Source: Myrmaecium sp. VS I D KN 1
Lineage: Eukaryota > Ascomycota > Dothideomycetes > Valsariales > Valsariaceae
Direction: 5' to 3'
Length of the DNA: 43,056 nucleotides
NCBI GenBank assembly: GCA_019775845.1
Contig: JADQAV010000006.1
Coordinates: 10,744-53,799, forward strand
Below the pieces are notes generated by a model. That model was not told the origin of the DNA. It made no database searches and worked only from the letters and a program-made list of their open reading frames with translations. Position numbers and translations under genes: made by a program. Below, one piece after another: positions 18,301 to 43,056 of this stretch (position 1 is the first letter of the stretch; each line of letters opens with the position of its first letter).

Positions 18301-21300
18301 GTTACCATGTCTGTTTCCAGATTTAGGCAATCCCATAGTTCCGAATTTTGTTCTAACATTTTCTTTAGGTTGTTTACTCTTCACGTTAAAGGAAATTATT
18401 TTTCCCTGGTTATAATGGTTCCTAATCCTTATCACTATCTCAAATAAGAATTCATTAATATATATCTTTACGCAGCCTAGATATTGCCCTATAGATGAGG
18501 CCCCTTGTGAATAAACTTCAAACAGTATAGTCTTAACCTTGGAAATTTCAGCTCAGAAAGCTACTCAAACTGTCTGCTCAGTTCTAATCTTTCTTTTATA
18601 CAGAGATGCTAAGTTCAAGATCGGGCTTTCCCCTTTCCCTAACTCTGTTGCTGGAGTCATTTTGGAACAATGACTAGAATCTGTTAGGATTCCTTGAATA
18701 AATTCGGCGCAATGGCGCACAATAGTACTATAAGCATATAATCTTTTTATTCTAAATTGAGATAATCCCACTACACTTCCTATAATCAAAGATAATAAAG
18801 AACTAATTAAAAAAGTGGTAGTTCAAGTAAAATTAAGAGAATTGGAATCACTTGTGTAATATACCAATTCTAAAAAGAAAGTAAATATAGAAATTTTTGG
18901 AATTATGGCTACAAAAGTTGTAACTATAGTAGGGTCAGTGGATTGGTTACCCTGCCCTCCGAACCGTACGTGATAGTTTCCCATCATACGGCTCTCCACC
19001 AAGAGGCTGTTTTGGACATATGAAGACTAGAAGTATTTTAGTTAAGTATGTCTTTTAGGTCTGGTTATCCCGGAGGTAATTAGGTGAACTTACTGATGGT
19101 TTTTATATCTCAGTAGTTTAGCTTTCCGCTGTGATATAGGCTATGATGGTAGCTACATAGCGGAATCTGCTTTCTTAGATATGCACCAGTTCATTCACTA
19201 TAAGTCGAATTTCCGGTACGCATTTTACGTCTAATGTCTTTCACCTTTCTGACATGGTGCATTTCGACATTAGAGTTTGATCCACAGACTGTACAGGCTT
19301 TGTTGATATTAGATTCTGTAAGTTTATTGTTTCAGCTCACGTCTAAGAAATCTAAACCTTTTTTGACGTGTGTCCCTCTTTTATATTCATGTATGGCATT
19401 AAGGTTCTTGGGGGAATATAACTTGATATCCGTTTCCGGACATTGGAGGTCTTTACCAAATCTCTTGAAGACGGCCCCAAGAGTTCTAATCTTTAGCTTC
19501 TTCGCAAGAGTAAGCGCACAACTTTCTTTCAAAATCCAAATCACATCTCACAGTTTAACTCGATTTCCTGCAAAGGAGTAGAAGTTTAGAATACCGTGAA
19601 TTTTGGAGTTATAGAAAGATATTATCTCGTGGTGAGATAAATTGATCATGGCATTTTTCGCTGTACCTCTAGGAACTAGGCAATTAGCTCTATTCTTCGC
19701 AAGCCCTGCATCAACAATTTTTTTGAAGATCTTCTTCGAGTCAGCATAAACTCTAAGTCTTGTTATCATTCTCCTACGTATTCCGCTTGAAGTTTTGATT
19801 AGACTATTTCTTATCATGTTGGCTCTGCTAATTTGCGCACCCAAGAAATTGAAACCTTCCTTTTGGATGTTGCTAATTACTGTCTTTTCAAGATTTAGGG
19901 ATAATCCGCATTTATTCGCTAGTACACTCTTGATTCTTGCCCGTATGTTTTCCGCATCTTCGAAAGATCCGATAACAAGGATTACGAAGTCATCTGCATA
20001 TCTCACGTATAGCATTCTTTTGAAGTTGGGATCTAGCGGGTTATATGCGTTCATTTTACGCATAGCCTTTAAGGTATCCTTTCTGATTAAAGGATCGCTT
20101 GACCTTCTTCTCCTTATTTCCAATTTGTTATATTCAGAGTTTTTTCGTCTGGTCTTACCTTTATTGAAGTCGTTTCTTAGCTTTTCAGCATAGGTATCTA
20201 GCTCATGTAGAACTATATTACTTATTAAAGGACTAAGTACGCTCCCTTGGGGTGTACCAACGTTGCTCTGAATTAACTTACCAGACTTAGGGTCAATGTA
20301 TCCAGCCCGTAGAGCCTTTTTAATAAGCTCTAAGGTTCTAACACATTTGACTCTTTTCTTTATTTTGGCCATGATTATATCATGAGGGATACTGTCGAAA
20401 CATTTGCTAATGTCTCCCTGTACCACTCAGGTGTAGTTACCCCCTTGTAAATAGAGAGTTTCTAACGCTGTATGTACGGATTTTTTCGGTCTGAAACCGT
20501 GACTATTCGGTGAGAATAGCGGTTCTCAGATTTGCTCTAGGATTGAAGCTAAAGCTTTTTGAACGATTTTCTCTCTAGGCGAGTTAATTCCCAGGGGTCT
20601 CTCCTTACCGTTAGATTTAGGGATCATTACCCTTCTAGCAGGGGAGAAGTCGAATTGGCCTTTAGCCAGTCTAGCCCCAAGGTCTTCGAATCACTTTCAA
20701 GATAGACCGTCTAATGTGTCCTCCGTATGACCTTTAGTCATATTACCTGGTTTACTTCTAATTTCTTCGTAACACGCGACTAAGAAGGCCGGGTTTTTCA
20801 TAATGTTTATTAGCCCATTATATACATTTTGATTGTTACAGTATGTCTGAAGTTCTTTCTTCACTAAACCAACGAACGAATCAGATTTCCGAGTCTTATG
20901 GGCATTGTAAGAGGATTTGTCTGAGACATGTTTTTCGAGGGGTTTAATTTCTAGTAACTTCGCTTCTTGGCTGTCTCCCTTTGAAATATTACTATTTCTA
21001 CTATGGAGACTCCGTCTCCGCATTAATGACGTATCATTAGAGGCGGTTGGATCCCGGAGTAGCGCTAGTCTGCCATATATATTCCGGTTTAGGTTCTTGC
21101 ATTGATTAAATCTGAGGGAAGTCGTGTGTGTTGTATTGGCTTTATTTCAGAGCCCTACTATTCTGAAAACACAATCACAAATATACTGATAGATCCTGGT
21201 TGAAGTATATTGCCTGCTTGTATGCCACTTCAATGTATCAAGTTCGTTATCCTGACCATGCCGGAAGCCACTAACACCTGTCCAAGGGAATTCCAGGATT

Positions 21301-22616
21301 CCCCGCTTAGTGTTTTCGTCCTCTGCTATAACACGACGTAGGGTTATTAGCCCTATGTATGCCAAGAACGTGTGGTACTCTAAGAGAATTAAGTATTCTC
21401 TTAAGCCAATGATGAGTAGTCTCATTTTTTTGAGACAGCAGATTAGCGCCCTTTCGGCGCACGTAGGGATAGCATCATAGACGTCAGGGCTTCAAAAATG
21501 AAAAGGTGCAGCAGATACTTTAAATAAAAACCCTACAGACATTATTAATAAACTAATATTAATATAATGAGATTTATATCAATAAAGTATATTATCATTA
21601 TCTAATTCTATATTACTATGATCTCATTCTATATTAATATCTGATATACTGTTTATTATGTATAAACCATCTAAGCTAGTAGTCCCCGAATTAGCATATA
21701 ATAAACTAGTAGCTAATAATATAAAACAGGATGATAATCCACCTAGTAAAAAATAAGTAAGACCTCCTCAAGTAGATTGTTCAGAATTTCTATAAGAAGA
21801 TGATAATAAATATAATCCATAACTTTGAAGTTCAATAGATAAAAATATTGAGACTAAATCAGAAGATGAGATTAAAAACAATGCACCAGTTATAATAAAT
21901 AAAATAATGAGAGGATATTCAATTATTTTAAATTGTTCTGCTTTTATATTTATTAAATCTCAGAATCTTTCTATACATATGTTATTAATTTCTTCCTTTT
22001 CATCTTTTTCTTCCTCTTCATCTTTTTTTTTCTCTTCATCTTTTTCTAAATTTACAAATACACGTTTTGTTTTCCTTGGAAATATTCTAAAGAGATCATC
22101 TAGAGGATGTCCATAGATTAAATTTAAATCGGGATATTTTATATATCTAGTATATCCAGGAGAAGGCCTATGATAATGGAAAGAAGTAGCTATATAGTTA
22201 TGTCTTATCCTCACATTTTTCCTCATACCCTTAAAGAATGGAATAAATATTTTTTTTTTTATAATTCCTATTTTTTTTTTTATAATTTCTATTTTTTTTT
22301 CTATTTTTTTTTTTATATTTTCTTCTGAATATATTTCACTAATAATTTCTCTGGGGTAATAAGAAGTTAAAATCAATATTATTGCACTTAATAATAAAAT
22401 AAAAAAATGAAAAAATTGAGTGTTAGAACTAGCATGGTATAAACCTCCATACAATCCTATACCTTTGTATAAAAAATTAAATGTTAAATTAATATAAATT
22501 AAAAAAATAGAGTATATAATACTTATTACGGAAGTTCTTGAAAATAAAATTGATAAATCTCGTTTTAATGTTACGGCATTTGATAATAATAAACAAGTTA
22601 AACTTGATAATAACAT
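15326..22616 (-). CDS. nad2: NADH dehydrogenase subunit 2, three exons, expanded
   Basis: ND2 is an antiporter-like proton-pumping membrane subunit of complex I. Exons: 22616-21463, 18928-18721, 16318-15326; 2355 nt, 784 aa, in frame. Conserved blocks are [72 protein letters not shown] and [15 protein letters not shown]. Fungal ND2 is usually near 550-600 residues; the excess lies in two places. One is a charged Lys/Glu-rich loop (about residues 96-218, [21 protein letters not shown] and [13 protein letters not shown]). The other is a stretch before the last helix (about 620-745) with [13 protein letters not shown] repeats. Both lie between membrane segments and keep the frame. Exon 3 is open only with TGA as Trp. 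The stop TAA overlaps the nad3 start. Confidence 0.94.
16363..16402 (-). ncRNA. group II intron domain V (nad2-i2)
   Basis: A 34-nt hairpin GAGCCGTATGATGGGAAACT/ATCACGTACGGTTC, the catalytic hairpin of group II ribozymes, lies about 45 bases before the intron end. The same sequence recurs in nad2-i1. Confidence 0.9.
16432..18336 (-). CDS. group II intron maturase, RT-X-HNH (nad2-i2)
   Basis: 634 aa from ATG 18336 to TAA 16432-16434, under table 4; the frame is open up to about 18525 with no earlier ATG. RT blocks: [23 protein letters not shown] (RT1-2), [26 protein letters not shown] (RT3), [13 protein letters not shown] (RT4) and YVRYADDWMLG with the catalytic YADD (RT5). Then comes the maturase domain X ([15 protein letters not shown]) and a C-terminal HNH nuclease: [31 protein letters not shown]. 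All key residues are present, so it looks able to support splicing and retrohoming into nad2. It is not in frame with exon 2. Confidence 0.93.
18959..18997 (-). ncRNA. group II intron domain V (nad2-i1)
   Basis: The hairpin GAGCCGTATGATGGGAAACT/ATCACGTACGGTTC is identical to that of nad2-i2 over its length, about 30 bases before the intron end. Confidence 0.9.
19080..21425 (-). CDS. group II intron maturase, RT-X-HNH (nad2-i1)
   Basis: 781 aa from ATG 21425 to TAA 19080-19082. The frame also runs back through the intron start into nad2 exon 1 ([14 protein letters not shown]), so it may be made as a fusion and cut. RT blocks: [60 protein letters not shown] and [11 protein letters not shown] with the YADD site. 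Domain X includes [17 protein letters not shown]. The HNH end reads [30 protein letters not shown]. All catalytic positions are kept. The N-terminal 230 residues before RT1 are longer than in nad2-i2. Confidence 0.93.
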
Positions 22617-22639
22617 AAAATGTAAAAAAAAGAATTTAG

Positions 22640-22862
22640 ATACAATTAATCGAAAATATAATTTAAATCGCAGTACAATCTATATGCCAAATATAATTTA
22701 AGTAACAATATAATCTATATCGCAAATATAATTTAAGTAACAATATAATCTATATCGCAAATATAATTTAAGTAACAGCATAATCTATGTCACAAATATA
22801 ATTTAAATCGTAGTATAATCTACAACGTAAATATAATTTAAATTGCAAATACAATCTAAGTA
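22640..22862. repeat. 35-nt tandem repeat array upstream of nad2
   Basis: About six copies of TCTATATCGCAAATATAATTTAAGTAACAATATAA, the outer ones diverged. It starts just upstream of the nad2 ATG (22616) and runs into the next ORF fragment. Confidence 0.86.
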
Positions 22863-24422: not shown

Positions 24423-25967
24423 TTATCTACCACCATTTCCTCTAGAGTTACCATAATAAAATTCCCAAATTTTCATCTCACGATATCTATTTGTTTGATT
24501 TGTTTTCCATTCGTGAATGAAAAGAAGTCTATATCTTGAATAAAAATTTAGTTTATCTCTGTATAGTCCATCAGCCCTTCTAGTTTGTTCAACACTATTT
24601 CTTAAAGACTGTCATTGAGTATCATTAGGTTCTAATGGGGGATGTAATATATATGCTTGAACACTATTAGATAAGTTTTGTTGAAACCGCAAAGAACCAT
24701 TATGATAGAAAAGATATAAAGCTTCTCCACTTCAATGAGAACTTAGTCCATAGATATTCGGTTGTTCTATACAAATAGGAATTAGGTTAGACTCAACTCC
24801 AGTCCAAAGAGTAGAAAAATCATATAAATTCAAATCTAAATGTTGTGAAGCTAGCATATTATTAAATCAGACTCTTACTTGATTAATTTCGAAAGGAGTA
24901 GCTACACGACTATAATCCCTCGTATTATTTACTTGATAATAGCTACGCTGAATAGAATTTGTTGAAGAACTACTAGAAGCTACAGGACTATTTCTAACAC
25001 TAGATATAGGAGGGTTAGTCGTAGTTAAAGCACTACTAGAAGATACAGGACTATTTCTAACACTAGATATAGGAGGGTTAGTCGTAGTTAAAGCACTACT
25101 AGAAGCTACAGGACTATTTCTAACACTAGATATAGGGGGGTTAGTGATAGTTAAAGCACTACTAGAACCTACAGGACTATTTCTAATATTAGATATAGCA
25201 TGGTTACTGGTAGTTAAAGCACTACTAGAAACAACAGGACTATTTCTAACACTAGATATAGGAGGGTTAGCGATAGTTAAAGCACTACTAGAAGATACAG
25301 AAGTTACTCCATTATTATTAGATGGAGTAGAGTTTAATAGACTATGGATATTAGACCTACGAAAGGTGTTGACTGAAGTACTAGTAGAAGCGATATTACT
25401 AATATTAGAAAAACCACTCTCATTATTAGCTGTAGAAATATTACTAATATTAGACGGACCTCCTCCATTATTAACACCAGAATAAAATCCAACTCCATAA
25501 CAAACTCGAGTTGAACCAAAAGAAAACACAATACGTAGTAGCTTAGAAAAGTCTAATAATTTAGAAATACGTAACGAAATAGGATTTGATCTAAAAAAAA
25601 TATAATCGAAAAACCCAAGTAATTTATCTAAATGAAACTTAGAATTTGCAAAAATAAAATCTCCTATACTTTTCATAAAAACCATATTAACTATAACGAT
25701 TTCTTTTATATCAACCATATTATTTAAAATAATTTTTTTATCTAAATCTTCCAAAATAGGTAATAAATAAATAAAAAAAAATTTTTTTAATGCAGGTATG
25801 ACATAAGGAATAAAATAAAAATAACTACCTAAAGCGGTAAGTAATAATCATAATAAATATAAGGGAGAAGTTTTATCTAAAATAAATTCAGTTTTAAAAC
25901 TTCAATTAATTTTATATACTCTAGAACCTACCTGAGTTAATTTATCAATAACCCATGTTAATGCCAT
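24423..25967 (-). CDS. ORF B, large unknown membrane protein with 21-residue repeats
   Basis: 514 codons from ATG 25967 to TAA 24423-24425 using table 4; the same frame is open upstream to about 26366, overlapping the cob end, and encodes further hydrophobic segments (IVLCVILSLLLLVYSLFGVW) without an ATG, so the true protein may be longer. The N-terminal part has membrane-like stretches (YLLWLLLTALGSYFYFIPYVI). The middle is Ser/Asn-rich with about five and a half copies of a 21-aa unit (SALTTTNPPISSVRNSPV core). The last 150 residues are non-repetitive and look folded (LYDFSTLWTGVESNLIP; GLSSHWSGEALYLFYHNGSL). I recognise no family. ORF A on the other side of cob has the same plan: membrane N-terminus, repeat middle, unique C-terminus. 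Confidence 0.75.
24965..25310 (-). repeat. 63-nt repeats within ORF B
   Basis: Five to six in-frame copies of a 63-nt unit containing ACAGGACTATTTCTAACACT on the + strand. Copies differ by a few bases, some changing residues (NPPISS versus NHAISN). Confidence 0.9.
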
Positions 25968-26347
25968 ATAAAAATTAATAATACATTTTAAAAAATTTAT
26001 AAATGAACTTGTTATATCTATATTAAATATACATATAACTACAACTCTAGTAATGTATAAACCTAAAATTGTACAACCAATAGTTATATATTTTTTTCTT
26101 ACAAAAGTAAAAAATAATTTTAATTTTTTTATAAAAGAAGAAAATAATACTTTAAATGAGTTACGGTTTATAAATTTGTCCTCTTTTAATTTCTCATTAT
26201 AATACTTATTTACCCATATACATAAATTTCTAAATAGTATAATTAAATTAAATAAAAAGAAAGAATCCCATACTCCAAATAAAGAATAAACTAATAGTAA
26301 CAGAGAAAGTATTACACATAGTACTATTGGTTGAAGACATCTATAAA

Positions 26348-29300
26348 TTAAAAAAGGCTCAAAAATTTTTTATTTAAAGATGAATCTTTATTTAAAGATA
26401 ATTCTACTAAACTATTTTCTAATAAACTTACTAAAGGTACTATAATTAAAAAATGTGCAAAATATAAAACTGTACTTATTTGGCCTAACTCGATAAACGG
26501 AGTCTCAACATGTTTAGCTCCTATTTGCATTAATATTAAAAAATTAGCTACAAAAATAAAGAAAGCTATTTTACTAAAAGGTCTAAATTGTATACCTCTA
26601 GTTCTACTTAAGTCTGTAAAAGGCATTGCTAATAATATTAATATTGCACTAAACATAGCTATAACACCTAATAGTTTATTAGGTATAGATCTTAAGATAG
26701 CATAGAAGGGGAGAAGGTATCACTCTGGTACAATAGCAGGTGGTGTTTGCATTGGATTTGCCATTACATAATTTTCTGAATCACCTAAAGCATTAGGCAT
26801 AAAGAAAACAAACATAGACAATACTATAATAAATAAGAATATAGTAATTAAATCTTTAAATATAAAGTATGGAGCAAAAGGTAATCTATCATAGTTACCT
26901 GAAACACCTAAAGGATTACTTGAACCTGCACTATCGTGTAATGCTATTAAATGCATTAACGCTAAAGCTGCTAATACAAAAGGTAACACAAAATGTAATG
27001 AGAAGAATCTATTTAAAGTGGCATTATTCACAGAGAATCCACCTCAAATAACAAATAATTATTGATAAATAGTTTAAAATTTACCATCAAAACTTTAGGT
27101 TTTGTTTAGACTAATTCTTCAATTTTTTACATATTATAATAAATATTTTTACAAAAATTGTGAGGTATTCGTGTTAAGCTTATTGTGGTACTACTCACTT
27201 ATTAGTCGTTGAACGTTTTTGACATCTAAATGTACCGTGTCAAACTTCGCTGCAAATAATTTAAATTAACGGAGGAAATATTAATTAAATGTCCTTGCAA
27301 TTATCCTCATTTGCCTCTAAAACATTAATGTTTTAAGGAGCCTATTTTTTTTTCTTTTTAAAAAAAAAAAAAGCCAGAAATTATCCTATAAGTACTTTAG
27401 GTACAGGCTAAAAAAAGGAGAGAGTAGATATAATAATTAAATTCTTATTAATTATTCAGGAAAATTAAGATTAGCGTAACGAGAACTATTACGCAGATTA
27501 GTTAACCATTTTAAATATTGAATATTTTTTAAACCAATTAAAGGATGTAAACCAGAAAACGAGAAAAAATTAATCACGGTTTGTATGTCAGCTTTAGAAC
27601 TTACACCAAATTGATTATATAAGCCTTTTTCAGTCTCTATTTTCCGACTTGTATTAAACACCAATTTAAAGGCTTCAAATAACATAAGGTGTACTCTTTG
27701 TTTTAATTGAAAGCATCCATCATTATTTTTTTTTACAAAAAAGGAACCTTCAGCCATTGTAAATCCAACTATTCAGTTTTTAAAGAACGATAAATTTGCA
27801 TAATCTAAGGCTGTTTTAGGTAATTCAAATAATGTAGGTATTTCTTCTTTAACCGGTAACTTATCATAAACTTTTTTATCCTCTTTTAAGATAAAGATAG
27901 CTAAGTCAAATTGAGCTCTTCGAGTATCAGTTAAAAAGAATATACCATGGTATAAAAATAATGGAAAAAGAACTTCTTGTAAATCAGTCTTATTAATTAT
28001 TAATTTACAACTTGGACTTTTATGATCACGATTTACTGTAATTTTTCCTATTTTTAATACAGATTTAATATACTCTAATGTAGAAATATCATCTAAATGT
28101 ATTGAAATTACAAGTTTAATAGTTATAAAACCTTTTCCCGTTTTAGTTATTTGAATATAACCATCACCATCTATTAAACCAGCTAAAAAAGCTAGAAAAG
28201 ATGAAGGAATAGAAAGATATTCTTTTTTATCTAATCTTATTTTTTTATTCCCCTTTTTTAACGCATGTACACTAACAGTACCTATAGTAGGCAACACAGA
28301 ATTAGTTATATAGACTATGTTTGAATAATATTCTGTTATGTTTTCTGACTCAACTATGTCTTGGCCAACTCAAGGTATGGCACTCATTAAGTTAGTAATA
28401 CAAAAATTTAGGACCTAAATAGTATTAAATAAAGTAAATGCAGCAGAATTCTATATAGAAGATTGAGAAGAATAGGCTTTGATTCTTTTTACAGTTTGAG
28501 CAACTATTAAACCCTGTTTATTTTTTACAGGTCTACCATCGTTTAAGCGTTGTGTTATAATATTATTACTTACCTGTAAAGCTTTAGCGCAAGAAACACC
28601 ATTAATATAATAATTAATAGAACCGTCTAAAAAAATAGCTTTAATAATATAAGTAGATCTTATATGTTTTTTCTCATTAATTATCATAGCTCTACCTTCA
28701 GAATCTATGCTTATTAAAGGTTTTGATTTAATTAAAAGATCTAATTCTGATTTAGTAGCATTATCAAGAGTTAAAGGCTTAGAATTTGTTGACAATCTAT
28801 TATTATTCATTGTATCTCCTAATTTAATTATTAATTCTTTACCTTTATCTGTAAGATGTTTACCTTCTAATACTAAAAAAGCTATTTTTCTAAAATCAAG
28901 GTAATCAAAATATTTTTTAGTATAAAATGTTATGCAATCAAAATAAGGTATTAATATATTACATATGTAGTCTATTTGATATATTTCTAAGATAGAGATA
29001 GGCTTATGACCCTGTTTTATTTTTTTATCACTAATATTAATTAGTTTAGTAGTACTACCTAAAATATAAGAGGACTCGTCTAATTGATTTAGAAGAAACT
29101 CTCGTATCTTTTCTAAAACTACTCTATTAGCTGTTGTAGTAACAAGTGCTACACGAGCAGTCATATCATGTTTATTTAAATAAAAGGATCCATCACCCTC
29201 TAGAAAACCTACCAAATAATTACCTGTAATAGTGATACAATGTCCCACAGGTAAATCAAAATTTACCCTTTTATCATTCATACCATCCTTTAATTTAAGA

Positions 29301-32300: not shown

Positions 32301-35300
32301 GCAAGTAAATACATAATCCATTACACCATCTAAATCTAAACGGTCTAAATATACTGCCGGTCTCCCGACGGATCGGACTATATCTTTATCCTCTCAAATA
32401 TAAAACCGTTTGCTTTATTGAGAGAATATATCACGTGTAGCCTCTGAAGACCCAAATACATACGCATTTGGTTTCCTGCTGATTGTCCTAAACTATGCTT
32501 TATTATAAAACAATTATTAATTATTAGGGATTTCCAGCATATAGTGATATTTTTCAACAGCTATTACTTAACTGTTGCACCCCATAGTGACATTTGCCCG
32601 TAGGGCAGTACATACAAACTTACTTATTATAAGAAAGAAGTTTTTAATCTTGTTATCAAATATCAGGCTAAATAGAAGATTCAAATTTATATCTTCCTCT
32701 ATAAAGCTTGTCTGTATCTATTTTTTTAGATATCGCGGAAGAAATATTAATATTACCCAGAGCTAAAGCTGCTTGAGTATAAGAAGAGAAAGGAGAACCT
32801 TCCACTAATTTACCATTATCATAAACATTTACACCAAATCCTGAATTACCTTTTTTAGATACTTTAACAATATCGGATAAAGCTTTATAAGATAACCCTG
32901 AAGATAAATCAAATATAGGAGGATTGTTTAATATTTCATTAATTTTGTTTAAGTTTGGAGCTTCCGCTACCAGAACGTTAGTTGTATATCTTTTATTAAT
33001 ATACTTAATTATTTCAATGAAACATTTTTTACCTTCAGGGTTTGTTGTATGTCCTAAAGTTTTAAGTTTTACTGCTAATTCTCATAACTGGAAATCTACA
33101 CCTTTTCTAGATATAAATGTTAATGATTTAAAAAAAGGTAAAATATAATTATAAAGTTGAAGAATATTAGTAACACTTAAAATACATGTATTAAGATTAT
33201 CTTTAAAGACTCCAGGAGTAGGCTTAGTGTTCAATTTATCAACTTTAGGTCCTATTTCTGGGCAATATGGTAACTTAATTAAAAATTCAGCAATTTCATA
33301 AAAAAAGTGTATATTTTTAGAGTGCTGTTTAATCGCAAAAGTAGGAACCATATTAGATATACAGAATGTACCATCCCCTTCTACAAATCCTAAAAGTCTA
33401 GAAGGAGTTAATGATCTCTTAGGAAGATCATTAATATTAAATTGAAATCTTTGACTATTCATACCCGATTTTATTTTTAATATTTTGTTTAATTCCTCTT
33501 TATTTAATTTTCTTTTTTCCATGTAAGATGTTTTTCTTATTTCAGCTGCTGCTTTAAAATCTTGGAAATCTAAAAATTTAGAAGTTGTAAAATAATATTT
33601 TGAAAAGATAGGAATAAGTATTTCCAGTATATCTTTAAACTTGGCTATTGTATAATAAGATTCATGAAGGTTTTTTGAATCTATAATAACACCTACCTCT
33701 CGATTTACCAATCCACTTAATAAATTTTTTATATATACTAAAGTTTGTCTATCATCTCAATGTAATTTTATTTTGAATGATAAAGCCCCTGTATTAGATA
33801 TAAAAAACATTGATTCTGCTTCTTAAAATCCACAGAATCACTCTAATTTAAATTCTCTTTCCTTTAATCAAGTTTCTTCCGGCTGGTTAATAGCAGTGTT
33901 TTGTTTTTGTCACACTTTATTAACAGATACAGACATGAGCTCAATGCCTTCATGATAACAGTCAGGTAAAACACACAATCTTACTTATTATCAAATAATA
34001 AGCTAGAATAACTTTGAATTCGTATATTCTATTAGTTAAATACTTTTTATCTAACTAAAAGTTCCGACTGTGCATTAAGCAGCATTTCAGCCACCCATTA
34101 GTGACCCAGTCTGTCGCGACCATTTATATGGCCGACGATCTTAAAGCTTGTGAAACTTCTTTGATCGTTTTCACTAACATCGCCAAATAATCTTAAAGAC
34201 TATTCTATATCCCCGTCGGGATATACCACTTTAATCTTTCTTTTTCTATAAAGATTGTAGAAAGATTGTTACTCGCGGGACTATGATTTAATATAAAAAT
34301 GAAGTATAATAAATTATTGATAATAAGATAACTATTTAGTTGACAAATCTTTTACTATTCATTGTCTTTTTACTATTCATTGTCTTTTTACTAATCCTTT
34401 TTCTGTTTTTAGTGCTCTTCTAATAGTTTTTTCATCACAGTTTATAGAATTAGCTGCATCTAAAATAGTAGAATATTCACCGTAAACAGTTCCATTAAGA
34501 TTATATAAAACTACAGGTCTTGTATGTGTAATACACTTTTTCTTAGTCTCATCAGACATAGGAGATCTATTTAAAGCTTTCTCTCTTATTTTCTCTATTG
34601 TTTCAGGAGAAAGCTTTTTACCTCTGTTTAAACTACCTACCATTTCCCGTCTTGCGTCAGTATAAATATCTTTCATTTTTTGACGGTCAACTTCAGTATG
34701 TTTATAACCAAAACTAGAACCTGCCTCAGTTAAAATATTATAATTAGGTAATAACAATTTTAGATATTTATCTTCTAAATCCAACAATTCCTTATTATTT
34801 TCTTTAGTAACTATATTAGGATATAATTCTAATATAATAAAAGCAAAATTATTTAATTCATATTTTTTTACTGCTAATTTAACTATTTTACTCAAGGCCA
34901 TCAGATTTATCATACAAACAAATAATTAATTCTTTACCTCCTATATAGTATCTGTTATTGTCTCCCCCTATTCATACCATCTTTAATTTTATAAATAAGA
35001 TCTATTCCTCCCTCTGTAAGATGAACTTTATTATTCATTAGTTCAATTACTTGAACTCAGTCAGAAAAATCTTGATATTTGGATCCTAAAATAGGATACT
35101 CCTTAAAGAATGGTATAATTATAGAATTAAGGTCTGAAAATTTCGACACTTCAAATATATAAGTATCTTGGTTTTTAAAAACATTTCCTGAATTAAAATA
35201 ATCAATTAAACTTCTTACTAAAAGCTCATCCCTATAATGTTGAGTTAATTGAAATTTTAATTGAACACTAACCCCTTGTTTAGAATTAGAAGATTTAGCC

Positions 35301-38300
35301 GTTTTTATATAAAAACAACCTTCTCCTGTTGCAAACCCAGCTAATCACTGAGGATTAGGAATCTTAGAGTCTATTTCCATAGATTTTTCTGAGACTATAG
35401 CATTAGGAAAAGCTATTTTTAAAGTATCTGAAAGCCCTTTATTAATTGATGCTTTTACTCCCACAAATATTTCTAAACCTTCTTTAGTTAAATGTTCTTT
35501 ATTTAACAAAATGTAATATGCTTTTTTAAAAAGTGTATAGTCTGCGTATTTTTTAGTTATCAAAGGATATTTATCAAAATGGTTTATAATTTTAGCTAAA
35601 TCTTTAATAGATTCAATTCTAAAATGTAACATAGAACCATGTTGAGATATATTCCCTGCATTAAAATAAAGTTTAATTTGTTCTAATAAAACTCTATCTT
35701 TATTGTGTAAACCGATTTGAAAAGTAAGTTTTACTCCTCAACCTGTTTTAGATCTGCTGTCTTTAGTTATTGAGAGAGTAAAGCAACCCTCAGCATCAGT
35801 AAACCCAGTAATGAACCAAGGATTTAATAACATTGTTTTTGGTAGGATTGTTTGACTAGTATAGAACCTTTTATTTATTTGGTTAGAAGGGATTCTGACT
35901 TGATAATTTCTTTCGAAACCCATTAGAGTACACCTTAAATACTTTTCCGTTGTTTTTTTTGATCAATTCGAGATAAGAGGTTTAAAAAAGTATCAACTAC
36001 CGTCTACTCGTTGCTCTTTTACAAACTCGTTTACCTTGTCTGACTTAGATCCGCGATATCCTATTTCTCTTTCGATCATCTTCTGGCTTGTTACCATACC
36101 TGAATAATTACTTCAGCCACTTATATTTTTTCAAATAAAGCTTGGTACCAGAAGCTTTAAGGAGTCCCCGGAGTTTGATAGTTTTAGGCACAATAGTGAG
36201 ATCCCGCCCCACAAAGCACCTCTGAAATAAATTAGATGGTTGCTGAATCTAGCATAAAATCTATTAGTTGCCGCAGAACCTATATAATAATCTTTAGTTA
36301 TTTTATTAACTATCATGTATATTCCACTTAAACCTTTAGTCTCATTTAATATTTGTTTTCTAATATTTTCTGAATCTAGGTTTTCGAAAATATACACAGG
36401 GTTTAGTCCTAATTCTTTAATTATTGAATTTAACCTTTCAGAACAAGAAAATCCAATACTATTATTTGAAGAAGGAATTGTACTATATCTTCTTTTATTT
36501 AAATAGTACGTTGACTTATTATTTAATTTATTATACTTTGTATTTTTCATGTTATTTCCTACTGGGTATATTAATACCTTATTTTTTCTAACTATATTTT
36601 GTATAGTATAATATACAATAATTAAAAGAATTGCAAAGGAAATACTTATATTAAACCATTTTGGGCTATATTCATAACCCAGGAAAGCTGTCTAAGTTCC
36701 GGCTAACTATAACCTAAATTTGTCTGTATAGCGCCCCTGTACTTCATCAATATATTAGTCCCCGATATCTAGTAAATATCTTTATAATATATATCATCTA
36801 AAGCCTTGTGTAATCTTTTAGATTAGGAACTTCCGACTGTACATTAAGCAGCATTTTAGCCACCCACCAGTGAACCAGTCTGTAGCGATCATATAATTAA
36901 CCGACGGTCTCTAATCAGACAACGAATGTTTGACCGTTTTCACTAGCATTGCCAGGTAATATACCCAACACCCCTTTCAGGGTGTTCTACTCTAGTTAAT
37001 AATTAATACAAAACTTATTAATTATAACAGTATATTTCTAATTATATATTTCATATACTCTAAGTTCGAGTAGGACTTTGATTTTTGGAGTCAAGTTAAA
37101 TATACCCAATAAATTTATATTTCATTTCGTCTACTATGTACGGTTTAACTATTGAAACTAAATCAGCCATAGATTGTTTTCAAATACTTATTTTCCATTG
37201 ATCAATATGGCCTGCTTTTATAACACTAGTTTTAAGTCCATATTTTTCATTAAGTATTTTACTTAAGAAAAGACAATCTTTATGTGAAAAACTGTTAGTT
37301 GCAAGAATTATCCCTTGATTTTTTTGTCTAGACCCATCTTGCCAATATCTCAGCGCTCCGTACACATAGTCATAAACTTATATAGTCCCTTACATATGTA
37401 TATAAATACGTATTTATATATAATATATATTTGAAATATAAATAAATAACAATAAATACAAAGTATAGCAGGAAAGATGAATTATTCCGTTAAAGAAATT
37501 ATATATTTACCAAATGCCTCTTTACTTAAGATATATTTTTTTATAGTATTTCTACCTATTTTCATCTTTAAGGCAGCATCTCTCATAGAAACAAAACATA
37601 TTGTTTCTTTAGTTTCTATATTAGTAAAAACAACTTTTTTACTTTTAGTTAAAATATTAAAATTAGCTATACCTTCGCTAATTCTTGCTCGAACCTCAGG
37701 AGAAAAAGGCTTGGAATTTAATTTTTTTAAATGTATTCTTGTTTTTTCTAAATGTTCTGGTGATTTTTTAGACATTTTTAATCGAGTTTCATCTGAATGT
37801 TTAAAACCCAAGCTTGAAGCAGCTTTAATTAAAATATTATATTTAGGTTTTAAAAGATCCATATAATATTGTTCTCTGGCTATTAAATCACATGAAGGAC
37901 TATATTCAAAAATTACTAAAGTAAATTCAGAATAACCATACTTGATTAAAGCTTTATGTATTAACATGTTACGTTTAGGATCAGTAATATAATTAAAACT
38001 ATAATAACTACTAAATCTTTTTCCTAAATCAACACTGCTTCCTACATAAATGTTACCATTTGCTTTGTTTATTCATCCATATATACCAGATTTACCTCTA
38101 TTTTCTTTTACGGCTTGTGCTTTTGAAGTATCGGCATTATCATATATCAAAACCGGAATAACTGGAAAAGAAGGTTTTCCATTTCCTGCTATACTATGTG
38201 AATAACGTAAACTATATTTGTTGCAAAAAGGATTAACGTGGTAAAACATTGTTTATATATATAATTAATTAATTTTTTTCTAGAAGTCTGATTAATCTTG

Positions 38301-39738
38301 TATAAATTAATATATTTTTTTTTAATAAAAATTTTAGATTAAAAAATTCTAGTTGGCTATACTTAACCTATAGTACTCATAATTTAATATAGGCTTTATG
38401 TTATTTTAACCTTTCTCCTAGTAATATAATTACAGATCTACCTTATAAGCGTTTACCTCTAACTATATGGTGGACATATAAATTGAAACCGTCTGACGGA
38501 TCCGTCCATTGCTATAAAAAACTAACTAATAATAAAAAATTAATTATTTAATATAATAGAAAACAATGATTTTATTATATAATACACAGTTGACCACAAA
38601 ATTATTAACATTATTTACGAATTTTATACTCCAATTCAGGTACTATATAGGGTTTTACTATATTCTTTATAATAAAATAATCTTTTTTCTCTATATATAT
38701 AGTAGAGCCTTCTTTAGATGGGCGAATGTTAGGAGATATGCCATATAGTTGATTAAGTATTCGAACCAAAAAAACTACATCCTCATAACTAAAACTATTA
38801 ATATCCAAAGATATACCACGAGAAGTACAATGTCCCATCTGCATGATTCAGTGCGCTAAACCTATAGGTGTTATAAATTCCCCTATTCAGTCTGGTATTT
38901 TTTTTGTCATAATACCATTGACTTCATGATAAAAGGAATTGTATATCCATAATAGACTAGTAAAACTATGGGTAGTTAATCTATAGTTATAACGAGTTAA
39001 TGTGGGATCTAATCGTTTGTCAACTTTTGCTTCAGATTTAACGATTAATTTAGGAGTTACTGTAGAACAGTAACCTAAACTATTTAAAATAATGTTAAGA
39101 TGATGTATATAAGCAGAATTTTTTACACCTTGCTCAATACAAAATCTAACACTATCCATTTGTTTACCTTTTATCTTATTACCCCATCAATCTCCTAACA
39201 TCCCGCATATTATTATTGATAATGCATCAATATTATGAGGACCTATCCTTTGGATAGCTCTAGTTCTACCTTTATTAAAAGGTAAAACAAAAGACTTGTT
39301 ATCATTTACATATTTAACTTGAGAATCCATTAATCAATTTGGCCACATAACTTTTACAATAGCCATCATTAATATAAAAATTACAGTACCAATAGTTCAA
39401 ACTAAAGTTCTTGGTGCTCTATAAGATCCATAGTATAAACCTCTTCCTATGTGTAAATAAACTAAGAAGAAAAAAGCAGAGGCCGTATTAGCGTGTAAAT
39501 AACGTATGAATCATCCATTGTTTACATCCCTCATAATATGTTCAACAGAATTAAAGGCCTCAGCTACACTAGGATTATAATGCATTGCCAAAGTAACTCC
39601 TGTAACAATTTGTATAATTAAACAAAAAGCCAATAAAGAACCAAAATTTCATAAATAACTTAAATTTGATGGTTGAGGTGAGTCTATTACATAGGAATTA
39701 ACCATCTTTAAAAGAGGATGACTTTTTAATATTCTCAT
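26348..39738 (-). CDS. cob: cytochrome b, five exons
   Basis: Cytochrome b carries both b hemes and the quinone sites of complex III. Exons: 39738-39361, 36691-36677, 32614-32571, 28400-28348, 27051-26348; 1194 nt, 397 aa, in frame. The introns fall after coding bases 378, 393, 437 and 490; 393 and 490 are, as I recall, commonly used sites in fungal cob. The heme histidine pairs are present with 14-residue spacing ([15 protein letters not shown] and [15 protein letters not shown]), as are [46 protein letters not shown] and [19 protein letters not shown] codes for most Trp. The start of exon 3 is open to question because a second, similar junction lies at 33976. Confidence 0.95.
27052..28347 (-). 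other. group I intron cob-i4 (coding position 490)
   Basis: It splits a Phe codon: GAGT (28348) before, TTATTTGAGG (27051) after, with G at 27052. The ORF occupies the 5' two thirds; the last 400 bases should hold the rest of the core, of which only a weak S-like AGAATTAGTC (27108-27117) is visible. A T/A-tract hairpin lies at 27345-27375. Confidence 0.8.
27452..28345 (-). CDS. LAGLIDADG endonuclease/maturase of cob-i4
   Basis: In frame with exon 4 of cob (GQDIVE|ENITEYY) to TAA 27452-27454, 297 codons. Motifs [12 protein letters not shown] and [12 protein letters not shown] are intact. The spacing and the ending [22 protein letters not shown] are those of the I-AniI / yeast bI3 family, proteins known to be bifunctional endonuclease-maturases of cob introns. 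This is the best conserved endonuclease in the window, and a splicing role for cob is likely. Confidence 0.9.
28451..29551 (-). pseudogene. LAGLIDADG gene, 3' part of a split gene, with NUMOD-like tail
   Basis: This frame (366 codons to TAG at 28451) starts abruptly with [19 protein letters not shown], which is the middle of a LAGLIDADG domain, and continues the sequence that breaks off at 30688 (FRISLH). It holds the second motif [12 protein letters not shown] with catalytic Asp and a C-terminal NUMOD1-like module ([20 protein letters not shown]). The first half (30688-30984) lies on the far side of an inserted gene (29606-30598). Unless the insert is removed from the RNA, the protein cannot be made whole. 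Confidence 0.8.
29552..30687 (-). mobile_element. inserted endonuclease element inside another endonuclease gene
   Basis: The element separates FRISLH from GDDRKALEL of one LAGLIDADG gene. It consists of one ORF with about 90 bases before and 54 after it. No P/Q/R/S core strings are visible. If it is a group I intron the ribozyme must overlap the ORF; otherwise it is a free-standing endonuclease gene. The ends are uncertain by a few bases. Confidence 0.65.
29606..30598 (-). CDS. LAGLIDADG endonuclease gene inserted in another endonuclease gene
   Basis: 330 aa from ATG 30598 to TAA 29606-29608. Motifs [13 protein letters not shown] and [12 protein letters not shown] carry both acids; the end [23 protein letters not shown] is the typical C-terminus. 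The linker block [21 protein letters not shown] resembles [21 protein letters not shown] of the neighbour at 31291-32289 and [21 protein letters not shown] of the nested cob-i2 gene, so the three are one subfamily multiplied in cob. Looks complete. Confidence 0.86.
30688..30984 (-). pseudogene. LAGLIDADG gene, 5' part of a split gene
   Basis: The frame from ATG 30984 ([15 protein letters not shown]) includes the first motif [12 protein letters not shown] and [10 protein letters not shown], then runs into unrelated T-rich sequence. The rest of the gene is at 28451-29551. In the motif the residue after the catalytic Glu is Ser instead of Gly. Confidence 0.78.
31205..31343. repeat. palindromic insertion at the end of an endonuclease gene
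   Basis: At about 31298-31343 lies a nearly perfect palindrome: TATTTTTTTTT-G-TTATTTTATA followed by its mirror. On its far side (31205-31297) the minus strand continues with [20 protein letters not shown] and [10 protein letters not shown], the normal end of the upstream LAGLIDADG gene in another frame. The insertion therefore displaced the last 30 codons. Confidence 0.8.
31291..32289 (-). CDS. LAGLIDADG endonuclease of cob-i3, C-terminus displaced
   Basis: 332 codons from ATG 32289 to a premature TAA 31291-31293. A hydrophobic N-terminal stretch ([13 protein letters not shown]) could be a membrane segment. Motifs [13 protein letters not shown] and [12 protein letters not shown] are intact. 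The last residues ([17 protein letters not shown]) come from a palindrome inserted in the gene; the ancestral tail lies behind it in another frame. The nuclease domains are whole, so the protein may still work. The frame starts downstream of the intron core and is not fused to cob. Confidence 0.82.
32668..33810 (-). CDS. LAGLIDADG gene with NUMOD1 tail, first motif broken
   Basis: The open frame from ATG 33810 to TAG 32668-32670 has 380 codons. Upstream the same frame runs to 33972 except for one TAA (33823-33825) in the middle of the first LAGLIDADG motif (WFCGF*EAESMF). The second motif [12 protein letters not shown] is intact. The C-terminus is a NUMOD1 module ([23 protein letters not shown]...RGRYKF). 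The break in motif 1 suggests a lost or decaying nuclease; sequencing error or RNA-level change is possible. Only about 55 bases separate its stop from cob exon 3. Confidence 0.75.
33964..33976 (-). other. second copy of the cob-i2 3' junction (CVLP)
   Basis: The minus strand reads ATAATAAGTAAGATTG|TGTGTTTTACC here and ATAATAAGTAAGTTTG|TATGTACTGCC at 32615. The first would code Cys-Val-Leu-Pro, the second Tyr-Val-Leu-Pro, the expected cob sequence. The two are clearly copies of one junction. Confidence 0.7.
34332..36550 (-). CDS. GIY-YIG endonuclease of cob-i2, split by a nested intron
   Basis: Two parts: 36550-36218 and 34892-34332. Joined, they give 297 aa with the codon pair GGT|AGT in frame and the continuous sequence [24 protein letters not shown]. 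Part 1 has [19 protein letters not shown] (GIY...YIG) and the Arg of RFYARFSNH; part 2 has the catalytic Glu ([17 protein letters not shown]), NUMOD3-like repeats ([28 protein letters not shown]) and a NUMOD1-like end ([23 protein letters not shown]). The frame upstream of ATG 36550 continues into cob exon 2 ([13 protein letters not shown]). The last Trp codons are TGA; stop TAG 34332-34334. Confidence 0.85.
34893..36217 (-). mobile_element. nested group I intron inside the GIY-YIG gene (twintron)
   Basis: The insert follows AGAGGT (36218) and ends with ...GCCTTG (34893) before AGTAAAATAG, so it obeys the U|intron|G rule and its removal restores the GIY-YIG frame. Its 5' part (AACTCCGGGGACTCCTTAAAG, 36147-36167) has the look of a group I core, and the ORF starts inside it. 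It is 1325 nt long. Confidence 0.8.
34955..36216 (-). CDS. LAGLIDADG endonuclease of the nested intron
   Basis: The frame is continuous with the first half of the host GIY-YIG gene (open from 36676 to TAA 34955-34957 under table 4), so an unspliced RNA would code a GIY-YIG/LAGLIDADG fusion. Translated intron core comes first ([20 protein letters not shown]), then [13 protein letters not shown] and [12 protein letters not shown], both with the catalytic Glu, and the tail [18 protein letters not shown]. The linker [20 protein letters not shown] links it to the two genes in cob-i3. Complete. Confidence 0.88.
37096..37380 (-). pseudogene. C-terminal fragment of a second-type LAGLIDADG protein
   Basis: The frame ending at TAA 37096-37098 reads [39 protein letters not shown] and [14 protein letters not shown]. 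This is the last third of the family represented by the ORF at 38611-39360 ([33 protein letters not shown]) but diverged from it. The N-terminal part is absent; just upstream lie GGGACTATAT and the GIY-YIG gene. It is the relic of an earlier intron ORF. Confidence 0.8.
37482..38249 (-). CDS. GIY-YIG endonuclease of cob-i1
   Basis: 255 aa from ATG 38249 to TAA 37482-37484, one Trp coded by TGA. The signature is [19 protein letters not shown] with the Arg in [10 protein letters not shown] and the Glu in [21 protein letters not shown]3-like repeat ([15 protein letters not shown]) and a NUMOD1-like end ([21 protein letters not shown]) follow. It stands free between two LAGLIDADG sequences of another family, which suggests that it invaded an intron that already had an ORF. 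Confidence 0.88.
38281..38378. repeat. copy of the intergenic 'CTAGAAGTC...TATAGTACT' repeat inside cob-i1
   Basis: TCTAGAAGTCTGATTAATCTTG and, 50 bases on, TTCTAGTTGGCTATACTTAACC match 39951-40046 upstream of cob, with a diverged AT spacer. Confidence 0.8.
38611..39360 (-). CDS. LAGLIDADG (second type) endonuclease/maturase of cob-i1
   Basis: In frame with cob exon 1 ([14 protein letters not shown]) to TAA 38611-38613, 249 codons. It belongs to the shorter LAGLIDADG_2 family rather than the double WLAGF type: the first motif is [15 protein letters not shown], and the second half shows [40 protein letters not shown] and IVKPYIV. In the second half the expected 'W.MDDG' is WIMQMG, so the second acidic site looks altered. 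Otherwise full length. Confidence 0.85.
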
Positions 39739-40866: not shown

Positions 40867-42558
40867 TTATTCTTTTGGTTCTACATAAGGAGGCTCAGTA
40901 GCAATTATATTTGCTATAGATTCAGGGCGTCATCTGAAATAATCGTAGTTATCTCTAGTATACGCAAAATACATAGCATATATATCATATATATGATAAT
41001 AGCGGCTAAAAATATAGTGTACACCAGGATCTCTAAGATCCAACCTACGAAAATAATCAGGTAAATCATGCAACATAGCCCTATGAAGTCTTGCTACTCT
41101 GGATTGAATATCAAACCATAAAGCATTAGATATATGAGCGGGACGGTTGTTTAAATCGCGATTATGAACAATACCCCTACTGTTCACTAAATATCATATT
41201 TGATCTGCTTCAATAGAAGCAGTTCTCATATGTCTAACTATCTCCCTTAAGAAGATAGAATTATTTGGATTAGTAGTATGTAACCTGAAATCGCTTTCCC
41301 ATCGTTCCATACCAGTAAAAGGATCTATTTCAAGAGTACTGAATGTATCATTCGGTCCCGCCGCATCATTTATACCTCTATCATTAACAGGATCGTCTCA
41401 ACTAGGTCTAACCACTATACTATGAAGAAGACGACCTAAACCATTTCTATGTATAGTATTTAAATACTCGTTAAATTCTAAGAATTTTTTACCCATTGTA
41501 TTTTTAAAGCTAGTAAGTCCTTTATTAAGTACATCATTAAAGCTAGTTATCCCTTTACCTAATACATCATTAAAACTAGTAATCCCTTTATCTAATACAT
41601 CATTAAAACTAGTAATCCCTTTATCTAATATATCATTAAAGCTAGTAGACCCTTTATCCAAAATATTTTTAGATGAAGTAACCGCTTTATCAAAAATATT
41701 TTTAGATGAAGTAACCGCTTTATCAAAAATATTTTTAGATGAAGTAACCGCTTTATCCAAAATATTTTTAGATGAAGTAACCGCTTTATCCAAAATATTT
41801 TTAGATGAAATAACCGCTTTATCAAAAAGATTTTTAGATAAACTAACCCCTTGATCAACGGAAAGAATACTATATAAACCTCTAAAAATACTAGGTAAAT
41901 TATATAACAATTTAATAAAGTCTTTATTAGTAGTTATACCTAAAAGCATAAATTTAAATAAATCAGAAATAAATAAATTAGAAATAAATAAATCAGGAAT
42001 AAATAAATCAGGAATAAATAAATTAGAAATAAATAAATCAGGAATAAATAAATTAGAAAAACTATTAGGCGATGAGAAAGTAAAAGTAGAGATAGGGAAA
42101 GGTAAATTCTGGCAGACAGACTCATATGCACGTAATGTTTGCTCAATTATAGGGAAATTTTCCATATATTTAGATAAATCAATTAACTGTGCAGTACCTA
42201 AATAAGGCTCTCCAAATGAAGGATATAATGAGCTATTCACCATCAATAATGAAATATCTGAAAATATAGCAGAAATAAGTAAATATAACGGAGAATCAAA
42301 TATTTGATTTAAATCTTTACTTAATAATAAGAATCTATCACTTAACTCATAAAATAATGAATTTGGATTAGAAAAGAATGGAGTTATTTCAGATATTCTT
42401 TGACCTATATCAGTTAATGCTATTGCTAACTCAGGAGACACTATAAGGATACTTACTCCATAAATTGTAATAACAAGAACGTTTGTACTAATACCAGCCT
42501 TTAAAATAGATATTTCTTTTTTTTCAAAAGGATTTTGTAGTTTAAATAAATTTGTCAT
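40867..42558 (-). CDS. ORF A, large unknown membrane protein with 11-residue repeats
   Basis: 563 aa from ATG 42558 to TAA 40867-40869, continuous under table 4 (Trp TGA at about 41399 and 40937). Order: an N-terminal membrane segment (ISTNVLVITIYGVSILIV, residues 23-41); a region with FIPDLF/FISNLF pentapeptide repeats (15-nt units, about residues 170-205); about eleven 11-residue repeats, first of SSKNILDKAVT type, then SFNDVLDKGIT type (about 235-355); then a non-repetitive, less AT-rich C-terminal domain of about 180 residues rich in Arg, Asp and Tyr (GIVHNRDLNNRPAHISNALW; RYYHIYDIYAMYFAYTRDN). I recognise no family. A constant 11-residue period with hydrophobic residues at fixed places fits an amphipathic helix. 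The plan resembles ORF B. Confidence 0.8.
41495..41850 (-). repeat. 33-nt repeats within ORF A
   Basis: Eleven in-frame copies in two subtypes: a 33-nt unit with AAAATATTTTTAGATGAAGT on the + strand (about six) and one with ACATCATTAAAACTAGTAAT (about five). The subtypes are blocked, which indicates recent copying within each. Confidence 0.9.
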
Positions 42559-43056
42559 AGATTTTATAATTGATACTAATTATCCTAACCTTACTAATTA
42601 TGTGTTAAACTAGACAAAACCAACAAAACCAACAAAACCAACAAAACTATTAATAAAAAAATAAGATATAGGGATAAATTAGTACAAAAACCATAAGTTA
42701 GTGAAAAACTAGGTTAAAAGTGACTATGCCAGCTGATGTAGTTCAACTGAAAAAAAAAAAATATTAAGAGCAAATATTAAAAACAAATGCAGATAAATCA
42801 CTTATTATTATATAAAAGTTTTGTTTTTTGTTTATTTCTGTTTCCAGTTTCTCTTACAAGGTATAATCCTTTTATTTATAAAAATATATTTAATAAATAT
42901 ATTATATTTATTAAATATATTTTATATTATTTTTATATATAATATATATAATATATATAATATATATAATATATAATATATAATATATAATATATATAAC
43001 ATATATAATATATATTATATATACTATATATAATATATATAATATATATAATATAT
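42559..43056. other. spacer with AT repeats at the window end
   Basis: Near 42610-42655 there are copies of ACCAACAAA; from 42880 on the sequence is mostly TATAATATA repeats. At 42728-42750 GCCAGCTGATGTAGTTCAACTG looks like the 5' third of a tRNA on the + strand, but an A-tract follows and no anticodon or T arm can be found. No gene supported. Confidence 0.6.

What the first reader, a model, noticed from the sequence alone, without database searches (positions are those of the whole stretch)
34332..36676. A nested intron with its own LAGLIDADG gene splits a GIY-YIG gene inside cob intron 2
Seen: the GIY-YIG domain stops at NHLIYFRG (36218) and resumes at SKIVKLAV (34892). The 1325-nt insert starts after U and ends with G, and joining the flanks keeps the codon frame (GGT|AGT). 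The inserted LAGLIDADG ORF is in frame with the first GIY-YIG half, so one RNA can give a fusion protein (unspliced) or a complete GIY-YIG nuclease (spliced). Known: fungal mitochondrial twintrons exist. Inferred: splicing of the inner intron switches between two selfish proteins, and the two elements depend on each other's RNA processing.
Basis: partly seen in the sequence, partly recalled or inferred. Interest (0 to 1): 0.78.

Follow-up and report, generated by a model that had tools for sequence, protein, structure and literature searches.

The report
Intron nested inside another intron's gene
In a fungal mitochondrial cytochrome b gene, one self-splicing intron with its own DNA-cutting enzyme has landed exactly inside the enzyme gene of another intron, so that removing the inner intron should decide which of two mobile-element enzymes is made; such nested introns are known, and this is a clean, well-preserved example.

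Summary
A 1325-nt insert (36217..34893, minus strand) splits a GIY-YIG homing-endonuclease gene inside the second cob intron; two relatives carry that gene uninterrupted at this exact place, with no base lost or gained. The insert is a group I intron: a covariance model built from 15 related cores, without this one, finds it at 163 bits (E about 1e-45); P1, P3-P5abc, P7 and P8 are present, and its ends match introns in nad1, nad2 and nad5. It encodes an intact I-OnuI-like LAGLIDADG enzyme in frame with the first GIY-YIG half, itself in frame with cob. Unspliced RNA reads Cob-GIY(N)-LAGLIDADG; inner-spliced RNA reads a complete GIY-YIG gene. Splicing and any 'switch' are inferred; no RNA was available. 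Mutual dependence is half supported: the GIY-YIG enzyme needs inner splicing, but the outer core is untouched and may splice regardless. Introns nested in homing-endonuclease genes are in print (A. stygium nad1-i4, C. thermophilum mS1247; related cases in Leptographium and Hypomyces). This is an unusually intact variant, at cob-393. A third, broken LAGLIDADG gene with an acceptor-like site lies at the outer intron's 3' end.

The parts
36677..36691 (-). cob exon 2 (15 nt, codons T A F L G; ends at cob codon 131, nucleotide 393)
   Evidence: sequence; codons counted by eye on the translation; same exon before the intron in L016 and L017
32615..36676 (-). outer group I intron at cob-393 (distal 3' site; a nearer acceptor-like site ends at 33976)
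   Evidence: P1 exon GGGU with intron GCCC (36676..36663); core motifs at 34286-34061; exon 3 [15 protein letters not shown] follows at 32614; plain version in L016
36218..36676 (-). GIY-YIG gene, first part, in frame with cob exon 2
34893..36217 (-). nested group I intron, 1325 nt
   Evidence: covariance model 163.4 bits; pair counts; P3 pairs; 3' end shared with introns in nad1 and nad2; empty site in L016 and L017
36040..36192 (-). nested intron core, 5' part: guide GCCU, P3 5' strand, P4, P5, P5a, P5b, P5c
35926..36016 (-). nested intron core, 3' part: P7 GAGTA, P3' GGTAGTT, P8, P7' TACTC
   Evidence: motif GAGCAACGAGTAGACGG at 36016-36000; P7'; P3 pairing; P8 read by eye
34955..36217 (-). 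LAGLIDADG ORF of the nested intron, double motif; stop codon directly after
   Evidence: Pfam LAGLIDADG_1 195.2 bits, two stretches; 350.9 bits to solved enzyme aHE15, 298.8 bits to an I-OnuI variant
34332..34892 (-). GIY-YIG gene, second part: rest of catalytic domain, NUMOD3, NUMOD1, stop
34061..34286 (-). outer intron catalytic core region, uninterrupted
   Evidence: aligned with L016 and L017; positions
32668..33975 (-). third homing-endonuclease gene (LAGLIDADG_1), after an acceptor-like site and an exon-3-like start (VLP); in-frame stop in its first motif here, open in L017

Best explanation
A mobile group I intron of the P5abc (IC-like) class, carrying an I-OnuI-like LAGLIDADG gene, inserted exactly between two codons of the GIY-YIG gene carried by the cob-393 intron. 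It is phase 0 and its ORF is open from its first base, so the LAGLIDADG frame is fused to the GIY-YIG frame, which is fused to cob. Proposed mechanism: (1) with both introns in the RNA, ribosomes coming from cob read a Cob-GIY(N)-LAGLIDADG fusion; (2) inner splicing joins 36218 to 34892 and gives a complete Cob-GIY-YIG frame; (3) outer splicing, with or without step 2, removes everything and gives cob. Shown here: anatomy, frames, core, ends, uninterrupted relatives. Inferred: that splicing happens, that both proteins are made and active, and the order of events. The confidence is for the anatomy and origin (a whole, splice-capable intron inserted into a once intact GIY-YIG gene); the first rival below accepts that anatomy and disputes only step 2, so the odds overlap.
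For: Core: a covariance model from 15 other cores, without the window, hits 36192-36040 at 163.4 bits, E 9.5e-46. On 16 cores 89.0% of 464 cells pair, 22 of 29 pairs have changes on both sides, 0 of 500 shuffles reach the covariation score. P3: own strands pair 7 of 7 in 13 of 14 cores and 6 of 7 in one; mean 6.93 against 5.49 for mismatched partners. 5' site: guide GCCU, at the same place as the nad5 guide, pairs with ...AGGU of the GIY-YIG gene ending in U.G; 283 of 43,046 minus-strand window sites would do so. 3' site...GATAAATCTGATGGCCTTG| matches relatives that end in G before nad1 and nad2 exons. Empty site: L016 and L017. Both ORFs intact; GIY-YIG dN/dS against the two relatives 0.29 and 0.32 (first part), 0.18 and 0.18 (second part). 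LAGLIDADG ORF 350.9 bits to a solved enzyme, with GFTDAEG and GFATGEG motifs.
Against: No RNA. Rfam finds no group I intron in the insert even at E 10, though it also misses the ordinary nad5 and nad1 relatives. P1 is only 4 bp, and P10 looks weak (one base at the expected place; read by eye). P6 and P9 were not tested. One pair measure, further pair types, is reached by 19 of 500 shuffles. Purifying selection on the GIY-YIG gene may predate the insertion. An open frame through the core is not a rule of the class: in 8 of 14 related cores (window included in the 14) a stop lies within 190 nt upstream of the P7 motif in that frame.
Confidence: 0.87

Rival explanations
1. 'Zombie' twintron: the composite is always removed as one unit by the outer ribozyme. 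The inner intron never splices by itself, so the GIY-YIG enzyme is never made and only the fusion or the LAGLIDADG part is expressed.
For: The outer core (34286-34061) is intact and away from the insert. Composite splicing is reported for O. ips cox3-640 (PMC12308204, passages).
Against: The inner core, both ends and the GIY-YIG frame are all preserved; GIY-YIG dN/dS is low in both parts.
Confidence: 0.25
2. A LAGLIDADG gene moved with only part of a group I core, as reported for Leptographium cox1-212, and cannot splice; the GIY-YIG gene is dead.
For: Precedent PMC10448965 (passages).
Against: The helices looked for are present and the tested ones covary; both ends match whole introns; the joint is exact.
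Confidence: 0.06
3. Assembly or contamination artefact joining two loci.
For: The window's assembly is a draft, and mitochondrial genes lie on at least two contigs (C3, C50).
Against: The ends fit a whole intron on both sides and the flanks fit the empty site to the base; one full-length copy found and no empty copy.
Confidence: 0.02

Closest known systems
Annulohypoxylon stygium nad1-i4 (PMC6140425, passages seen)
   Same: Group I intron with a GIY-YIG gene invaded by a 1329-bp intron with a double LAGLIDADG_1 gene; two isolates lack the insert
   Different: There the GIY-YIG gene is already in three pieces and a 46-bp inverted repeat lies 9 bp from the insert; here the gene is whole once joined and the joint is exact
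Chaetomium thermophilum mS1247 twintron (I-CthI; PMC4801052 and PMC8393795, passages seen)
   Same: An inner intron interrupts the homing-endonuclease gene of the outer group I intron; splicing restores it; tested in vitro and in E. coli
   Different: Inner intron is group II without ORF; here it is group I with its own endonuclease gene in frame
Leptographium sp. cox1-212 complex intron (PMC10448965, passages seen)
   Same: LAGLIDADG gene fused in frame to a GIY-YIG gene and the upstream exon
   Different: Only a partial second ribozyme there; the passages read propose no restoration of the GIY-YIG gene by splicing
Hypomyces aurantius cox2-i1 (PMC4964425, passages seen)
   Same: GIY-YIG gene split by a fragment carrying a LAGLIDADG gene
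   Different: 2183-bp fragment without recognised intron structure; authors consider the GIY-YIG gene degenerate
Powdery mildew introns cox1-1016, nad1-636 and nad5-717 (PMC8767329, figure legend seen)
   Same: Described as holding hybrid LAGLIDADG/GIY-YIG domains
   Different: How the two domains are arranged is not in the passages I read
cob-393 intron (PMC8767329, PMC11856489; H. aurantius cob intron 2 in PMC4964425; passages seen)
   Same: Same site (after cob codon 131). GIY-YIG ORF stated for G. cichoracearum and the other Leotiomycetes analysed, N. crassa and H. aurantius
   Different: No nested intron there is mentioned in the passages read

Membership tests
Group I intron (inner) | Conserved paired core (P3, P4, P5, P7, P8) | tested here: met
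   P7 by motif match, P8 by eye; P6 and P9 not tested
Group I intron (inner) | 5' exon ends in U paired with guide G (P1) | tested here: met
   AGGU/GCCU, 4 bp
Group I intron (inner) | Intron ends in G | tested here: met
   CCTTG| at 34893, as in relatives
Group I intron (inner) | P10 with the 3' exon | tested here: inconclusive
   by eye: one base at the expected place, a 5-bp match a few bases further on
Group I intron (inner) | Splices | not testable with these tools
   no RNA
Group IC subtype | P5abc extension | tested here: met
   P5a, P5b, P5c helices; the link of P5abc to IC is recalled; IC1 against IC2 not decided; no RNAweasel
Twintron / nested intron | Whole intron inside another intron | tested here: met
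Twintron (strict) | Outer splicing requires prior inner splicing | not testable with these tools
   position in the ORF, upstream of the outer core, argues against it
I-OnuI-like LAGLIDADG endonuclease | Two LAGLIDADG motifs with acidic residues | tested here: met
   GFTDAEG and GFATGEG read by eye
GIY-YIG endonuclease (after joining) | Catalytic domain above curated cut-off | tested here: met
   27.6 bits against 22.6
cob-393 GIY-YIG intron | After cob codon 131 with fused GIY-YIG ORF | tested here: met
cob-393 GIY-YIG intron | Subgroup ID | not tested
   ID is printed for H. aurantius cob intron 2

The most novel reading that the evidence does not exclude
A working post-transcriptional choice between two rival homing endonucleases from one frame: the extent of inner group I splicing sets the ratio of a Cob-LAGLIDADG fusion to a Cob-GIY-YIG enzyme, so the inner intron spreads by homing into GIY-YIG genes of other introns (an intron whose 'host gene' is another parasite) while sparing its carrier's mobility.
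Probability: 0.3. Interest if true: 0.66.

Novelty: new variant of a known kind. Interest (0 to 1): 0.45.

Why it matters
It is a clean case of a mobile element using another mobile element's gene as its home, with relatives that show the outer intron alone (L016) and the outer intron plus a 3' homing-endonuclease gene but no nested intron (L017). Because both enzymes look intact and one frame runs through all three genes, it allows a direct test of whether a nested intron regulates homing endonucleases in nature; the tested example I met in the papers is a group II intron (C. thermophilum mS1247).

Tried and rejected
Rfam: no group I hit on the insert and none on L002 and L023, which hold ordinary relatives, so not informative. 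Bacterial and archaeal genome contigs searched for the GIY-YIG gene: 252 pattern matches, 0 relatives. A second IMG/VR scan for it gave 8 loci: the two already known (again, as L027 and L028) and six distant GIY-YIG genes (29-35% identity); L032, which looked split, holds three separate GIY-YIG matches. So 2 of 8 bear on the empty site. The IMG/VR scan with the nested LAGLIDADG protein gave 1 relative of 4 pattern matches (L018, 44%). A profile of the GIY-YIG gene finds no solved relative: the one hit up to E 1 is ribosomal protein uL29 at E 0.029, taken as chance. In the P1 script the fifth case (L024) scored 0 because I cut its exon one base short; I do not count it. Loci overlapping others (L001, L011-L015, L026) were left out of the core collection. 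Most viral-contig cores were found by an exact 17-base motif that covers P7 and the first two bases of P3', so those positions are preselected. The two nad5 cores are among the 15 that built the model, so their own scores are by construction. The structure was drawn on the window's row, which favours its percentage paired over slid versions. Considered and rejected: tandem introns (the insert lies inside an ORF, not beside the outer intron); GIY-YIG gene as plain pseudogene.

Literature: the listings (30 of 169 papers shown; 20 of 23; 2 of 2; 7 of 7; 3 of 3; 7 of 7; 10 of 34), which show titles and the start of abstracts, and the passages I opened in nine papers, mention no nested intron in the cob-393 GIY-YIG gene. 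Most subscription papers are not held; the Guha et al. survey of cob introns (DOI 10.1080/24701394.2017.1404042; title recalled) is not, so a prior report cannot be excluded.
Full report
The window is fungal mitochondrial DNA, contig C50 of an unnamed 25.66-Mb assembly ('fungal' is my reading of its genes and code), with cob on the minus strand. cob exon 1 ends ...ILMMA (codon 126). Exon 2 is only 15 nt (TAFLG). The second intron begins at 36676 (TATGAATATAGCCC, whose GCCC pairs with exon GGGU). This is after codon 131, nucleotide 393: the site called cob-393 in the literature. An intron with a GIY-YIG domain at cob-393 is reported for G. cichoracearum, the other Leotiomycetes analysed and N. 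crassa (PMC8767329); an ID intron with a GIY-YIG ORF at cob codon 131 for H. aurantius (PMC4964425); and a conserved cob-393 intron, ORF type not stated, for Moelleriella (PMC11856489); passages.

Check of the observation. Joining 36218 to 34892 keeps the frame and yields one 344-aa frame with GIY-YIG, NUMOD3 and NUMOD1. Of the forms tested, the GIY-YIG model passes its cut-off only for the exact join: 27.6 bits, against 17.3 for the first half, no hit for the second half, and 17.8 and 20.1 for two wrong joins. Two IMG/VR contigs that by their genes are fungal mtDNA (L016, L017) carry the same gene uninterrupted, in an intron after the same TAFLG codons. Across the joint they read AGAGGTAGCAAA and AGAGGTAGTAAA against AGAGGT|AGTAAA here: no base lost or gained. 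L016 has the plain outer intron. L017 has the outer intron plus the 3'-terminal LAGLIDADG gene but no nested intron. The GIY-YIG gene of L016 has an in-frame stop; that of L017 is open.

The insert is a group I intron. Its best other DNA match in this assembly is a nad5 intron at codons YMSHDP|HNQ on contig C3 (78% over 196 nt of core; read). A 17-base motif fetched further relatives. From 15 cores without the window I built a covariance model; RNAalifold chose P4, P5, P5a, P5b and P5c by itself, plus small 2-bp helices. Over 63,056 bases it gives three strong hits: the nad5 intron (164.3 bits), the nested core (163.4 bits, E 9.5e-46) and a second nad5 intron (142.1); the two nad5 cores helped to build the model, the nested one did not. 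The next hit is 14.8 bits. On the 16-row alignment with a hand-drawn structure, 89.0% of 464 cells pair, 22 of 29 pairs have changes on both sides, and 0 of 500 shuffles reach the covariation score; 19 of 500 reach the count of further pair types; slid structures drop to 35-47% paired. P3 was tested apart: among 14 cores (of 16) with both strands found, 13 pair 7 of 7 and one 6 of 7, through several different sequences such as AACTATC/GGTAGTT here and AAGAACC/GGTTCTT elsewhere. P7 (GAGTA/TACTC) and P8 (ATACTTTT/AAAAGTAT) are also there (P8 read by eye). P6 and P9 were not tested. Rfam does not see the intron, but it misses the ordinary nad5 and nad1 relatives too.

Ends. The guide GCCU sits the same 23 bases before the end of the CCGGG box as the nad5 guide GGGAU (counted by eye), and pairs with the GIY-YIG gene's AGGU, ending in the U.G pair; the nad5 guide pairs with nad5's AUCCU. 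Of 43,046 minus-strand window sites, 283 would pair as well. The last 20 or so bases...TATGATAAATCTGATGGCCTTG, match introns that end in G before real exons, for example nad1 GAATACGCTAGC and nad2 TTCCATTTTTGATC (exon names are my own reading). P10 looks weak, which is a point against.

The proteins. The inner ORF is a full double-motif LAGLIDADG enzyme (195.2 bits, two stretches; 350.9 bits to the solved enzyme aHE15 and 298.8 bits to an I-OnuI variant) with both acidic motif residues (by eye). It is open from the first base of the intron; single-base shuffles of the 318-nt core stretch stay open in 8 of 5000 cases and of the whole 1263 nt in 0 of 2000. In 8 of 14 cores of the class a stop lies within 190 nt upstream of the P7 motif in this frame, so the fusion is not simply a property of the ribozyme. 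The GIY-YIG gene shows dN/dS of 0.29 and 0.32 (first part) and 0.18 and 0.18 (second part) against L016 and L017, no higher than between those two (0.41 and 0.20). These values rest on strongly diverged synonymous sites, and much of that history may predate the insertion.

How it most likely works. One frame runs from cob through the GIY-YIG start into the LAGLIDADG gene. Unspliced RNA can therefore give a Cob-GIY(N)-LAGLIDADG fusion, in the manner described for fungal intron ORFs fused to exons ('core creep', PMC8393795, passages). Inner splicing would restore a complete GIY-YIG frame, and outer splicing gives cob. Since the GIY-YIG domain's conserved parts lie on both sides of the insert, inner splicing should be needed for that enzyme. 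Whether the ratio is regulated is open.

Compared with what is known. A. stygium nad1-i4 has a 1329-bp LAGLIDADG intron in an already broken GIY-YIG gene. H. aurantius cox2-i1 has a GIY-YIG gene split by a LAGLIDADG fragment without recognised intron structure. Leptographium cox1-212 has the same in-frame stacking with a partial ribozyme. Powdery mildew introns with hybrid LAGLIDADG/GIY-YIG domains are listed in a figure legend. C. thermophilum mS1247 is the tested version with a group II intron. The present case combines a full inner core (as far as tested), two intact enzymes and one continuous frame. I met no report of it at cob-393 in the listings and passages seen, which do not cover most subscription papers. 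I class it as a new variant of a known kind.

Neighbourhood. Downstream of the outer core there is an acceptor-like end (...AATAAGTAAGATTG, ending at 33976), an exon-3-like start (VLP) and a third LAGLIDADG gene, which ends before a second, similar acceptor at 32615. This resembles the biorfic introns of Podospora (described in PMC4964425; that such introns use alternative 3' sites is recalled). In the window this gene has an in-frame stop in its first motif; L017 has it open, with 92.7% DNA identity over 1379 bases, against 78.7% over 1331 bases for exon 2 and the outer intron without the insert (window 36691-33900), which suggests a later transfer.

Noticed in passing
36690-39350 (minus strand): cob intron 1: a LAGLIDADG_2 gene fused to exon 1 is followed by a complete GIY-YIG/NUMOD gene (37482-38252) and then a second copy of the LAGLIDADG_2 C-terminal part (37096-37377): a GIY-YIG element seems to have entered a LAGLIDADG gene, the reverse of intron 2.
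   Followed up: partly
32615-33976 (minus strand): Third homing-endonuclease gene at the 3' end of the outer intron with its own acceptor-like site and exon-3-like start; broken here, open in L017 at 92.7% DNA identity, higher than the outer intron's 78.7%: possible recent transfer.
   Followed up: partly
about 36530-36650 (minus strand): Between the cob exon and the GIY-YIG domain the window has extra residues, including a hydrophobic stretch ([18 protein letters not shown]), that L016 and L017 lack.
   Followed up: no
14895-22679 (minus strand): Genes that look like nad2 and nad3 (named by eye), with two group II introns (domain V at 18929-18996 and 16319-16400) and ORFs that look like group II reverse transcriptases by eye.
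   Followed up: no
24423-26369 and 40867-42579 (minus strand): Long free-standing ORFs with internal repeats (NPPISSVRNSPV...; SSKNILDKAVT...); no function looked up.
   Followed up: no
window 10819-10979 (minus strand): Weak hit of the core model (14.8 bits, E 0.027) near cox1: possibly a diverged intron of the same class.
   Followed up: no
L018 2900-3500: In a contig of IMG/VR that looks like fungal mtDNA, a GIY-YIG/NUMOD-like ORF end is followed by a LAGLIDADG C-terminal piece and an intron end of the nested class (by eye): perhaps another stacked homing-endonuclease case.
   Followed up: no
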